Positions 16,732 through 21,674 of a stretch of DNA of 22,143 nucleotides are shown here, piece after piece. Source of the DNA: a virus. A program made the position numbers and the translations under genes. The notes beneath the pieces were generated by a model. The model worked only from the letters and a program-made list of their open reading frames with translations. It did not search any database and was not told the DNA's origin. Location: positions 1 through 22,143 of IMG/VR virus record IMGVR_UViG_3300046028_007772; one strand, 5' to 3'. The stretch's first letter is position 1. Every line of letters begins with the position of its first letter.

Positions 16732-16887
16732 ATGACTAAAGAAGAACTCGTAACACAGTTGAAAAATCTGTCAAAAATTAATGATGTTGAACAAGCCCAT
16801 GTTTTGGCAGATAGATTGTTATTGGAATATATTAATGATTCCGAAGTAACAAAAATATTTCACGAAATTGAAAAATGGTACGCATAG
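16732..16887 (+). CDS. small helical hypothetical protein
   Basis: A 51-residue frame starting one base after the preceding stop. The sequence MTKEELVTQLKNLSKINDVE is followed by an amphipathic helix (QAHVLADRLLLEYI) and FHEIEKWYA. It is fully helical by appearance. The ribosome site is weak (GGTGGTGAT), so translation is probably coupled to the upstream gene. No family recognised. Confidence 0.6.
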   Translation: MTKEELVTQLKNLSKINDVEQAHVLADRLLLEYINDSEVTKIFHEIEKWYA

Positions 16888-16901
16888 AAAGGAAACAGAA
16901 A

Positions 16902-17411
16902 ATGACACAGAATAAATTTTGGTTGGTAATGGACGGTATGCTTGGGTTGTCAGGTGACAGTGAAATTTTTAAATATTTTACATTTGATGAGGCACTAAAA
17001 TCTGCTAAAGAAAAAACATTTTTAAACCGACCTAAAGAATATACAGTTCTTGAAGCAACACACCATTTTAAGGCTGATGTGAATGTGGTTGAAACTGTTT
17101 TATCAGGACAAACAATTAATTTTTTTGAAAAGAATGAATTGGTAAAATTAGGAGTTCTTGAAGAAAAAACAGACTTAAATGCAGAGGAACACGAATTAAC
17201 CCTTGCACAACCAGAAACACCTAAGCAGGAGTTTAAAGTAGGTGACCACGTTATACAGGATAAATGCCTCAATTCAATTTATAGGATAAATCGGATAGAT
17301 AAAAATTGGGTATCAATGACTCCAATATATGGAGGAATAGTTGGAACAATATTCGAAAGCCAATGTTCCATAGAAAGGCTATCTCGTTTTAAAATGGTAA
17401 TTTTGGATTAA
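16902..17411 (+). CDS. hypothetical protein with a KOW/SH3-like C-terminal segment
   Basis: I start at the ATG at 16902 with AAAGGAAA upstream; an earlier in-frame ATG (16875) lies inside the previous gene. The 169-residue product begins FWLVMDGMLGLSGDSEIFKYFTFDEALKSA, a compact beta-alpha unit, then has an acidic linker (residues 85-105), then EFKVGDHVIQDKCLNSIYRI (about 109-128), whose VGD-V...Y-I pattern resembles small SH3/KOW-like barrels seen in phage proteins. It is the last gene before a strong terminator. Function unknown. Confidence 0.7.
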   Translation: MTQNKFWLVMDGMLGLSGDSEIFKYFTFDEALKSAKEKTFLNRPKEYTVLEATHHFKADVNVVETVLSGQTINFFEKNELVKLGVLEEKTDLNAEEHELTLAQPETPKQEFKVGDHVIQDKCLNSIYRINRIDKNWVSMTPIYGGIVGTIFESQCSIERLSRFKMVILD

Positions 17412-17426
17412 CCCACGCATAAACCA

Positions 17427-17460
17427 AACCCCCTAAGTGTGGACTTAGGGGGTTTTAATT
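17427..17460 (+). terminator. strong rho-independent terminator of the recombination operon
   Basis: AACCCCCTAAGT (17427-17438), loop GTGG, ACTTAGGGGGTT (17443-17454): a perfect 12-bp stem followed by TTTTAATTTT. On the opposite strand the tail is weaker, so it may also help end the minus-strand cluster that comes from the right. Confidence 0.92.
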
Positions 17461-17605: not shown

Positions 17606-17827
17606 TTATTTGCCATAATCAATAAAAACAGCGTCAACACCATTTTCTGACTGTTGATGTGTCCCCTCATACCAAGAGGTAGTGGCGTTTAAAGAAATTT
17701 TTACCTTACTTACAGATGTGCAATCTTCGTAACCGCTTTCATAGCCACTAACAACAACCCTCATGTCGCCGTCAAACTCTTTCAGTTTTTCAATCAGTTC
17801 TGCAACTGTGGTTTTTGTGTTAGTCAT
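17606..17827 (-). CDS. small conserved hypothetical protein (TVAELIEKLKEFDGD family)
   Basis: A 73-residue protein opening TVAELIEKLKEFDGDMRVVVSG (residues 7-28), a motif I associate with small proteins of phages and proteobacteria (helix, then a strand with V-V-G-E-G-DD). The C-terminus ends in a strand (GVDAVFIDYGK). No catalytic residues stand out. Its ATG overlaps the previous stop by one base, with AGAGGTAAG upstream, the same ribosome-site sequence as its two upstream neighbours. It is the last gene of the accessory cluster. Confidence 0.72.
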   Translation of the reverse strand: MTNTKTTVAELIEKLKEFDGDMRVVVSGYESGYEDCTSVSKVKISLNATTSWYEGTHQQSENGVDAVFIDYGK

Positions 17828-18078
17828 TATCTTACCTCTATTGTTTTATATAATTCTATAGTAAAGCAACCGTGACAAATTTTTACCAAACTATCACGGT
17901 TATTTTCTCTAAAAAGCGAATCGATTAAATATTGTCCACTTTCGACCGAACCGCAATTTATTTTTGCAACCTTATCTTTAAAAAAAGAATGACCTTGTCC
18001 GTCTTGATTATGCTTTTCTTGTGAAAATTCATAAGTCCAGTCTGCGCAATCGCTAATTGCTGATATGTTTTGCATCAT
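17827..18078 (-). CDS. hypothetical accessory protein
   Basis: An 83-residue protein with four Cys (residues 11, 42, 68 and 71) including a CHGC pair near 68-71. The N-terminal part is polar with DGQGHSFFKDKVAKI. The CHGC pair could bind metal, but there is no clear second pair. No family recognised. AGAGAGGTAAG precedes two consecutive ATGs (18078 and 18075), either of which could be used. It overlaps the mini-ATPase stop. Confidence 0.65.
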   Translation of the reverse strand: MMQNISAISDCADWTYEFSQEKHNQDGQGHSFFKDKVAKINCGSVESGQYLIDSLFRENNRDSLVKICHGCFTIELYKTIEVR

Positions 18079-18521
18079 CTTACCTCTCTATTTTTACTGA
18101 TTGCTTTTATTAATTCGTCTGCAGTGTACATTGACACGACAGAACGGTTATTGTCCTTTGGTATAGCAGAGCGTCCCAACCGATAATAATAAGCCTCTAT
18201 ATTAGGGTATTCCTTGGCAACTTCTACAAACGCCTGAATAACGTCGAGGCGTTGGGTTGTTGCAAAGATTTGTTGGCTATATTTTTTGATATTATTAAAA
18301 TAAAACCTAATTTCTTTATGTAGCTCACTGTAGTGTGTTGAAAATAAAATCTCATCAATTATTTTCACATCATCTGTACGTCCTGCAATGGAATTAAATA
18401 TATCATATTGTCCATTTTCATACTTACCGCAAAACAGATTAAAATGACCCAATTTATCAATCGTGAGATTATCTATATTTGTGCAATGGATATTCTCTAT
18501 TTTCTCAATGTGTTTCTTCAT
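18075..18521 (-). CDS. miniature, ATPase-dead AAA15/OLD-like protein
   Basis: I start at the second ATG (18521) because AAGGGA is six bases upstream; the first ATG (18527) abuts it. The 148 residues match both ends of the AAA15 (ABC-type) ATPase family but lack the middle. IEKIENIHCTNIDNLTIDKL plus GHFNLFCGKYENGQYDIFNSI (about 5-45) aligns with the family's N-terminal strand and P-loop, yet GKYENGQY replaces GKNNSGKT, so nucleotide binding is lost. KIIDEI (53-58) is a Walker B, HYSELHKEI follows it, and QIFATTQRLDVIQAFVEVA (84-102) matches the ATTHS switch region with His changed to Gln. Normal members exceed 350 residues. It has intact spacing and a ribosome site, so it is probably expressed. 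Confidence 0.72.
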   Translation of the reverse strand: MKKHIEKIENIHCTNIDNLTIDKLGHFNLFCGKYENGQYDIFNSIAGRTDDVKIIDEILFSTHYSELHKEIRFYFNNIKKYSQQIFATTQRLDVIQAFVEVAKEYPNIEAYYYRLGRSAIPKDNNRSVVSMYTADELIKAISKNREVR

Positions 18522-18534
18522 AATCATTCCCTTC

Positions 18535-18741
18535 TTAACTCAATGATATGTTTTTCATGTGATTAAATTCTGACACAAAATAATCTGATAAAGCCTGCAA
18601 GGTGCTGACATCAATATTTGCATCATCTTTTTTGGCAATTCTGGATAAAGTGCCATGCGTCAAGCCGACCTTTTTAGCGATTGCTGACAAATTGCGTTCA
18701 CGCTTAAGTAAATCGCTTATTGTTTTAATTGTTAATAACAT
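18535..18741 (-). CDS. XRE-like HTH regulator of the accessory cluster
   Basis: A 68-residue protein. Residues 17-50 (NLSAIAKKVGLTHGTLSRIAKKDDANIDVST) form a clear XRE helix-turn-helix: LSAIAKKVGLTHGTLSRIAK is near consensus. AGAGAGGTTAAA precedes the ATG. It is the first gene of the leftward accessory cluster and diverges from the gene at 18872. The palindrome TGTTAT-aaaa-ATAACA (18755-18770) just upstream is a likely operator for self-regulation and perhaps for the divergent promoter. No dimerization domain is present. Confidence 0.8.
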   Translation of the reverse strand: MLLTIKTISDLLKRERNLSAIAKKVGLTHGTLSRIAKKDDANIDVSTLQALSDYFVSEFNHMKNISLS

Positions 18742-18754
18742 TTTAACCTCTCTA

Positions 18755-18804
18755 TGTTATAAAAATAACAATACATTATCAAAATAGATATTGCAAGGTA
18801 TAAA
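18755..18804 (+). promoter_or_regulatory. divergent control region: operator palindrome and rightward promoter
   Basis: TGTTATAAAAATAACA (18755-18770) is a perfect 16-bp palindrome; a shorter relative, TGTTAATAACA, lies at 18730-18740 over the HTH start. A rightward promoter is formed by TTATCA (18776-18781), 17 bp and TATAAA (18799-18804). A leftward TTGATA/TAACAT pair overlaps the palindrome on the other strand. Both promoters sit within reach of one repressor. Confidence 0.55.
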
Positions 18805-20901: not shown

Positions 20902-21237
20902 TTATCCTTTTTTCAACGCATTAATAAATCTTAAACAAGCATTAAACCCACTTGAAAAAGCCATATCACCATAACCAATAAATTCTATTGGCTCTAAGAG
21001 TTTTTTTAATAGCTTGACGTGATTATCATCTAATTTATCAATATCATCAGCATATTTTTCTATAAGTTGGTTTGCTTCTTCGTACATCACACTTGCGGAT
21101 TTTTTAAATAGATTTATCAAGTCAATTTGAATTTTGTCATGCAATTCTTTATCAAAATTATCATTATTAGGTTTTTTAATGTAATTTCTTACTAAACCTA
21201 TTTTTCTGTGATACTCTTTGAAATTTTCTTTTTTCAT
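20902..21237 (-). CDS. small helical hypothetical protein next to DUF262
   Basis: A 111-residue protein that is helical throughout, lysine-rich, with no Cys motif. It begins MKKENFKEYHRKIGLVRNYI and ends in GDMAFSSGFNACLRFINALK. GGAGGAG precedes the ATG inside the 3' end of the DUF262 gene, and the two overlap by 4 bp, so translation is coupled. The pairing suggests the two products act together, perhaps as effector and modulator (inference). No family recognised. Confidence 0.68.
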   Translation of the reverse strand: MKKENFKEYHRKIGLVRNYIKKPNNDNFDKELHDKIQIDLINLFKKSASVMYEEANQLIEKYADDIDKLDDNHVKLLKKLLEPIEFIGYGDMAFSSGFNACLRFINALKKG

Positions 21238-21674
21238 GCTCGCTCCTCCTCTTTATGTGCTGTTCCGCTGAAGTTCATAAGGTTGTAATAGTTTTTCAGA
21301 TATTCTATATCGTCGCTTTGTGTGACATAACAAGGGAATTGACAGTTGTGGAATTTTCTATCGGTAACCTCTGAATAAAACAAACCATACACTTTAAATT
21401 CATTGTTCACGTATTCCTTTATGGCATTAACACGCTGTTGTCCGTCAATTAACAACCTATCCAAAGCAGGATTGTCTGATTCGTTTACTGTGTAAGTGCC
21501 AATCGGTATTCCAACCAATAGCGACTCAATTAACCTTATCTTTTGCCCTTGCGTCCAGACAAGCGGACGCTGAAAATCAGGCAATTTAAAATTAAAATAA
21601 TTGAACTTAGGATTTGTAAAATGCCCTACTGTGTAATTATAATGTTGTCCCAAGTTAACCTTTGGCGGTATCAT
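21234..21674 (-). CDS. short standalone DUF262 (GmrS-like ParB-fold) protein
   Basis: A 146-residue protein with the DUF262 core: LPDFQRPLVWTQGQKIRLIE (residues 31-50), SLLVGIPIGTYTVNE (51-65) and RLLIDGQQRVNAIKEYV (73-89), the last holding the DGQQR motif that is near invariant in the family. DUF262 forms the ParB-like nucleotide-binding half of type IV restriction enzymes such as GmrSD and occurs in several defence systems, usually fused to a DUF1524 HNH nuclease. Here there is no nuclease domain, and the end (YYNLMNFSGTAHKEEERA) is a family variant. Phage copies could bind nucleotides or interfere with host enzymes; this is inference. Confidence 0.84.
   Translation of the reverse strand: MIPPKVNLGQHYNYTVGHFTNPKFNYFNFKLPDFQRPLVWTQGQKIRLIESLLVGIPIGTYTVNESDNPALDRLLIDGQQRVNAIKEYVNNEFKVYGLFYSEVTDRKFHNCQFPCYVTQSDDIEYLKNYYNLMNFSGTAHKEEERA

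What the first reader, a model, noticed from the sequence alone, without database searches (positions are those of the whole stretch)
18075..18521. Miniature AAA15/OLD-like ATPase with a lost P-loop and no middle: possible defence decoy
Seen: a 148-residue protein matches the N-terminal and C-terminal blocks of the AAA15 ABC-type ATPase family, but the P-loop reads GKYENGQY where the family has GKNNSGKT, the switch His is Gln, and over 200 residues between P-loop and Walker B are gone. The gene keeps a good ribosome site, tight overlaps and an adjacent HTH regulator. Known: AAA15/OLD-type ATPases are sensor subunits of several anti-phage systems (Gabija GajA, Septu PtuA, PARIS AriA) and act as oligomers. 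Inference: a dead mini-subunit keeping the dimer-forming ends could poison such complexes, or be a regulatory partner. Caution: the terminal EVR overlaps the next gene's ribosome site, so those three residues are not independent evidence.
Basis: partly seen in the sequence, partly recalled or inferred. Interest (0 to 1): 0.72.

Follow-up and report, generated by a model that had tools for sequence, protein, structure and literature searches.

The report
Phage mini ATPase, likely immunity decoy
A virus of bacteria carries a cut-down, nucleotide-blind copy of the ATPase half of a bacterial two-protein immune system; similar miniatures turn up in unrelated phages, so this looks like a real class of phage proteins that may hold the immune system's killer half in check.

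Summary
Its nearest family is PDC-M38A/AbiLi (E 2.6e-19); full-length relatives sit next to a DUF3226 TOPRIM effector gene, which this phage lacks. It is not a one-off: three other mini-AAA15 lineages, on seven further viral contigs, have the same P-loop-to-Walker-B deletion but intact P-loops. One of them is under purifying selection (dN/dS 0.08-0.13). The AlphaFold model (pLDDT 85.5) keeps exactly the elements that flank the deletion. In the window's copy the ATP site is eroded while the C-terminal part is as conserved as in full-length proteins, a pattern unlike plain decay. Published structures place the dimerisation domain in the deleted part and the TOPRIM-docking face in the kept part, and AAA ATPases of such pairs act as antitoxins of TOPRIM toxins. 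I therefore favour a trigger-blind, phage-encoded antitoxin or decoy for a host TOPRIM effector over poisoning of ATPase dimers (confidence 0.42). No partner has been shown, and the window's lineage has a single known sequence.

The parts
18075..18521 (-). mini-AAA15 gene, 148 aa (alternative in-frame ATG at 18527)
18387..18512 (-). N-terminal AAA15 block, residues 4-45 (strands b1-b3, P-loop region, first helix)
   Evidence: alignment, shuffles, model
18405..18428 (-). degenerate Walker A / P-loop GKYENGQY, residues 32-39 (family GKNNSGK[TS])
18369..18404 (-). junction (residues 40-51) replacing about 240 residues of the family
18351..18368 (-). Walker B remnant VKIIDE, residues 52-57
18252..18254 (-). 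H-loop switch residue, Gln90 in place of His
   Evidence: His in 22 of 22 full-length
18078..18248 (-). C-terminal part, residues 92-148; equivalent (by topology) to the TOPRIM-docking face of OLD; conserved at family level
18535..18741 (-). Cro/C1-type HTH regulator, 68 aa, first gene of the operon
   Evidence: Pfam HTH_3 E 6e-6, PHROG 9425
17827..18078 (-). 83-aa gene overlapping the mini by ATGA; not a TOPRIM/DUF3226 by profile
17606..17827 (-). 73-aa gene, last of the four-gene unit; unknown function
18732..18763 (.). weak inverted repeat over the HTH start and a promoter-like site (possible operator; may be chance)

Best explanation
The gene is a phage-encoded miniature of the ATPase subunit (PDC-M38A/AbiLi type AAA15) of a two-gene AAA15-TOPRIM defence system. 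It has lost the self-dimerisation and signature region and the nucleotide site, and keeps the compact core with the C-terminal face on which the TOPRIM partner docks in OLD proteins. It most likely works as an orphan, trigger-blind antitoxin or decoy: made in the infected cell, it occupies the host's DUF3226-type TOPRIM effector and holds it inactive, or keeps it off its own ATPase, so the phage escapes abortive infection. Shown here: homology, deletion, loss of the ATP site, recurrence of minis in other phages, purifying selection on one other mini lineage, predicted fold, absence of a TOPRIM gene in the phage. Inferred: binding to TOPRIM, the host target, the timing, the benefit.
For: All full-length relatives whose downstream gene was tested (9 of 9) carry a DUF3226 TOPRIM gene directly after the ATPase, often with ATGA overlap; PADLOC calls the pair PDC-M38A/B. 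The phage has neither DUF3226 nor an integrase by profile. ATPases of this kind neutralise TOPRIM_OLD toxins in E. coli assays (PMC10440598), and AriA sequesters AriB until triggered (PMC12409363). In Ts OLD the TOPRIM docks on a6A, a7A, a8A and b11A, while the dimerisation domain is inserted between b8 and b9 (PMC7049728); the mini keeps the first set and lacks the second. Segment test: identity to full-length proteins is 39% at the ATP site (54-73% for all 29 other rows) but 24% in the C-terminal part (others 14-24%), ratio 0.62 against 0.22-0.40. Minis recur in unrelated phages, with dN/dS 0.08-0.13 in L030/L032/L033. A viral Phd antitoxin that inhibits a host Doc toxin is a published precedent (PMC11065993).
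Against: No binding partner, host or phenotype is known. The window's own lineage has one sequence (two assemblies, 100% identical), so selection on it cannot be measured. The TOPRIM-docking argument is carried over by topology from OLD, a single-chain homologue; no complex was modelled, and published AlphaFold models of AAA:TOPRIM pairs were not convincing (PMC10440598). The other minis keep the P-loop, so they may not work by the same nucleotide-blind route. Foldseek scores of the mini against the PDB are weak (best E 1.2e-3). The segment test was devised after looking at the alignment.
Confidence: 0.42

Rival explanations
1. Dominant-negative poison of ATPase assemblies: the mini enters the host ATPase oligomer through the ABC head-to-head interface and blocks ATP hydrolysis or sensing.
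For: AAA15/OLD ATPases act as oligomers (PMC10781630, PMC12409363). [quoted passage not shown]
Against: The dimerisation domain is in the deleted part. The window copy has also lost the P-loop Lys and Thr/Ser, the D-loop ENG and the H-loop His, residues that make the ATP sandwich.
Confidence: 0.2
2. Decaying relic: a defence pair once carried as a moron lost its middle and its TOPRIM gene and is now drifting.
For: Only one sequence of this lineage; very long branch (3.7 changes per column); only 26 of 43 family-conserved positions kept, against 36-40 in the other minis; L065 shows a shrunken ATPase (238 aa) with a truncated partner.
Against: Intact ORF with ribosome site and ATGA coupling. The C-terminal part is as conserved as in full-length proteins while the ATP site alone is eroded. 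Confident compact fold. Minis in other phages are under purifying selection.
Confidence: 0.2
3. Phage regulator or structural co-factor without a defence role, for example a partner of the adjacent HTH protein or of a phage complex.
For: First two genes of one operon with an HTH protein; minis elsewhere sit among structural genes (L030 between endolysin and PAAR, L068 in the head-tail cluster).
Against: All minis score best against PDC-M38A/AbiLi defence ATPases. The neighbours differ in each phage, which argues against one phage-internal partner.
Confidence: 0.13
4. A stand-alone minimal defence or exclusion protein carried by the phage against competitors.
For: AAA15 genes are common defence cargo in proviruses and plasmids.
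Against: No effector domain, no TOPRIM partner, no ATP site, no integrase in the phage.
Confidence: 0.05

Closest known systems
PDC-M38A / AbiLi AAA15 ATPases (with PDC-M38B / DUF3226 or AbiLii TOPRIM partner)
   Same: Both ends of the protein, Walker B, D-loop His, QIFATT strand and C-terminal E-V-R; best profile matches of all minis.
   Different: The mini lacks about 240 middle residues, the P-loop Lys/Thr, the switch His and the TOPRIM neighbour gene.
PARIS AriA and OLD/GajA ATPases
   Same: Same ABC/AAA15 core fold; AriA holds a TOPRIM effector in check (PMC12409363); OLD topology explains which elements were kept (PMC7049728).
   Different: Full-length catalytic, oligomeric proteins; the mini has no dimerisation or sensing region.
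Other viral mini-AAA15 proteins found here (L030/L032/L033, L035 two copies, L063, L068)
   Same: 140-186 aa, same deletion between P-loop and Walker B, conserved C-terminus, no TOPRIM gene next door.
   Different: They keep an intact P-loop and switch His; some have altered Walker B (DG in L032/L033, DN in L068, EE in L035b).
Phage-encoded antitoxins (for example the viral Phd of SMV1, PMC11065993)
   Same: A small phage homologue of a host antitoxin without the toxin gene.
   Different: No AAA15-derived phage antitoxin was found in the papers searched; function not shown.

Membership tests
PDC-M38A/AbiLi AAA15 ATPase | N- and C-terminal AAA15 blocks homologous to the family | tested here: met
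   PADLOC E 2.6e-19; N-block shuffles
PDC-M38A/AbiLi AAA15 ATPase | functional Walker A G-x-x-x-x-G-K-[ST] | tested here: not met
   GKYENGQY; K and [ST] are in 22 of 22 full-length relatives
PDC-M38A/AbiLi AAA15 ATPase | middle region with beta subdomain, Q-loop/signature and dimerisation helices | tested here: not met
   15 predicted secondary-structure elements of L020 are absent
PDC-M38A/AbiLi AAA15 ATPase | H-loop histidine | tested here: not met
   Gln90; His in 22 of 22 full-length
PDC-M38 / AbiL two-gene system | TOPRIM (DUF3226/RloB) gene adjacent | tested here: not met
   DUF3226 profile finds nothing in the whole phage record; next gene has no such match
OLD/GajA nucleases | C-terminal TOPRIM domain in the same chain | tested here: not met
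   148 aa, ends at the ATPase C-terminus
PARIS AriA | AriA-type ATPase with AriB (DUF4435) partner | tested here: not met
   no AriA match for the window protein, no partner gene
phage-encoded antitoxin / anti-defence protein | phage-encoded homologue of a host antitoxin without the toxin | tested here: met
   phage genome, no DUF3226; AAA ATPases act as TOPRIM antitoxins (PMC10440598)
phage-encoded antitoxin / anti-defence protein | binds the effector and blocks defence | not testable with these tools
   no complex prediction or experiment available
recurrent mini-AAA15 class (proposed here) | both ends present, P-loop to Walker B deletion, single open frame of 140-190 aa | tested here: met
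   single origin not rejected (AU p 0.197) though the tree places the minis in four spots

The most novel reading that the evidence does not exclude
Phages have repeatedly cut the sensor ATPase of AAA15-TOPRIM defence systems down to a 140-190 residue TOPRIM-binding core, and use it as a trigger-blind antitoxin; the window's copy is the extreme case that has also given up nucleotide binding.
Probability: 0.33. Interest if true: 0.82.

Novelty: new variant of a known kind. Interest (0 to 1): 0.6.

Why it matters
AAA15-TOPRIM pairs (AbiL, PARIS and candidate systems such as PDC-M38) are widespread, and it is unsettled which part of the ATPase keeps the TOPRIM effector quiet. A natural 148-residue version without ATP site or oligomer domain would show the minimal TOPRIM-silencing unit, would be a new type of phage counter-defence, and gives a search rule (both AAA15 ends in a short frame) for finding more. 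If it is instead a relic, the recurrence and purifying selection of the P-loop-bearing minis in other phages still need an explanation.

Tried and rejected
(1) Single-sequence scan of genome contigs gave one chance hit on the peptide AKEYPNIE in an unrelated enzyme; the same peptide brought in L003-L007 from viral contigs: discarded. (2) Weak Pfam, PHROG and phage tblastn matches (CarG, NrdB and others): chance. (3) Streptococcus 'Lp2 protein 4', Vibrio retron ATPase-TOPRIM and an Acinetobacter phage protein matched minis but are about 370 to 700 aa, not minis. (4) The 83-aa neighbour as a shrunken TOPRIM: no profile support. (5) A single origin of all minis: the tree disfavours it (4 changes, 0% of bootstraps with one origin) but the AU test does not reject it (p 0.197), so multiple origins are not claimed as shown. 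(6) Minis in cellular genomes: in 297 Acidobacteriota genomes all 12 AAA15 matches at E 1e-10 are 336-460 aa frames; other phyla could not be reached. (7) Neighbour-gene scan for related phages found only the same phage. (8) MAFFT first placed the helix after the P-loop next to Walker B; the mini alignments place it after the P-loop. The exact junction is uncertain by several residues.

Full report
WHAT IS THERE. The reported coordinates hold a 148-residue ORF on the minus strand. The window is part of a phage: portal, terminase, capsid, DnaB-like helicase, exonuclease. A second IMG/VR record (IMGVR_UViG_3300046003_004184, 41,876 bp) is 100% identical to it over essentially the whole window (bases 1-22140), and its two ends overlap by 126 bp in window coordinates, so it looks like the whole circular genome. 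That record has no tyrosine integrase, no DUF3226 and no AAA_15 match by profile; the mini itself is too diverged for the Pfam AAA_15 model. The mini is the second gene of a minus-strand unit: HTH regulator, mini, 83-aa gene, 73-aa gene, with short overlaps after the mini and phage-like ribosome sites.

HOMOLOGY. PADLOC places it with PDC-M38A (E 2.6e-19) and AbiLi (E 5.6e-9). Plasmid ATPases match residues 41-148 at E 3e-8 and are 371-389 aa. The N-terminal block, tested alone, exceeds 1995 to 2000 of 2000 shuffles for each of four relatives. All nine downstream genes of full-length relatives that were tested are DUF3226, some also weakly matching OLD-like_TOPRIM or DUF4435. About 240 residues between P-loop and Walker B are missing.

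NOT A ONE-OFF. C-terminal and mini-based scans of 2.9 million viral contigs gave about two dozen contigs with AAA15 frames, most of them full length with a TOPRIM-like gene next door, and three further mini lineages. First, L030/L032/L033 (143 aa, GKNNSGKT, between an endolysin and PAAR/baseplate genes). Second, L035 (two tandem copies, 186 and 185 aa) with L063 (163 aa). Third, L068/L069 (140 aa from the likely start, in a head-tail gene cluster). Where tested, Pfam AAA_15 matches them in two blocks near the ends of its 374 positions. None was found in 50,697 annotated phage genomes with three mini queries, and none among 12 AAA15 matches in 297 Acidobacteriota genomes. For L030/L032/L033, dN/dS is 0.08-0.13, like neighbouring structural genes (0.04-0.16); for L035/L063 it is 0.41-0.57. 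The tree puts the minis in four places, but one origin is not rejected (AU p 0.197).

STRUCTURE. AlphaFold2 on the mini with 39 relatives: mean pLDDT 85.5, pTM 0.82, elements E E E H | E H E H E E H. The full-length relative L020 (pLDDT 82.8) has E E E H, then 15 elements, then E H E H E E H. In Ts OLD the sheet order is 7-6-4-1-2-12-11-3-10-9-8, and the dimerisation domain lies between b8 and b9 (PMC7049728). By topology the mini keeps b1, b2, b3, b9, b10, b11 and b12, which are neighbours in that sheet; it drops the rest and the dimerisation domain, and keeps the helices and strand on which the TOPRIM domain packs. This mapping is my inference from the order of elements, not a superposition. 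Foldseek finds SMC heads, GajA and Rad50 first, with weak scores, and several 131-191 aa viral proteins in BFVD (best E 8e-6), which I could not examine.

WHICH PARTS ARE KEPT. Among 30 sequences, the window's mini has the lowest identity to full-length proteins at the ATP site (39%; others 54-73%) and joint-highest in the C-terminal part (24%; others 14-24%). The ratio is 0.62 against 0.22-0.40 (by segment). The other minis keep the ATP site at family level. Of 43 positions conserved in full-length proteins it keeps 26; those lost include the P-loop Asn, Lys and Thr/Ser, the D-loop E-N-G and the H-loop His-Ser. Uniform decay would not spare the C-terminal part. The segments were chosen after seeing the alignment, so this is suggestive rather than a planned test.

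MECHANISM. AAA ATPases of this kind neutralise TOPRIM_OLD toxins in E. coli assays (PMC10440598). AriA hexamers sequester AriB until a phage protein triggers release (PMC12409363). A phage protein that keeps the TOPRIM-facing part of such an ATPase but no sensor, oligomer or ATP site could hold the effector quiet without responding to the trigger. Dimer poisoning is less likely because the dimerisation domain is gone. Decay remains a serious rival for the window's copy alone. What is shown is homology, architecture, recurrence and selection on another mini lineage; the partner and the function are inferred.

LIMITS. One sequence for this lineage; host unknown; no complex modelling; the genome search was restricted to one phylum; the literature library is open-access only, and its searches found no description of mini-AAA15 phage proteins.

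Noticed in passing
L035 2297-2857 and 3084-3641 (IMGVR_UViG_3300011116_001170): Two tandem mini-AAA15 genes, each preceded by a copy of the same small gene (67-77 aa): a duplicated two-gene cassette in one phage contig.
   Followed up: partly
L065 2501-3217 and 3210-3692: An intermediate 238-aa AAA15 with a P-loop, followed by a 160-aa gene that begins like a DUF3226 TOPRIM and then diverges; it looks like a shrunken or decaying defence pair.
   Followed up: partly
window 21234-21674 (-), next gene 20902-21237 (-): A 146-aa protein with only the N-terminal part of DUF262/GmrSD_N (E 1e-17). Similar sequences occur in Sinorhizobium, Caulobacter and Escherichia phages, so it is probably a common small phage DUF262 protein.
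   Followed up: partly
Foldseek BFVD hits A0A8S5NJK7 (191 aa), A0A8S5N321 (146 aa), A0A172JI18 (131 aa, Bacillus phage AR9), A0A3G8F5P3 (179 aa): Small viral proteins that resemble the mini's predicted fold (E 8e-6 to 1e-3); possibly further miniature ABC-type folds in phages.
   Followed up: no
L032 and L033 (DG), L068 (DN), L035 3084-3641 (EE): Walker B is altered in several P-loop-bearing minis although the P-loop is intact, hinting that hydrolysis is not needed.
   Followed up: partly
window 17426-17455: A strong terminator-like hairpin between the convergent plus-strand gene 16875-17411 and the mini's minus-strand unit.
   Followed up: no
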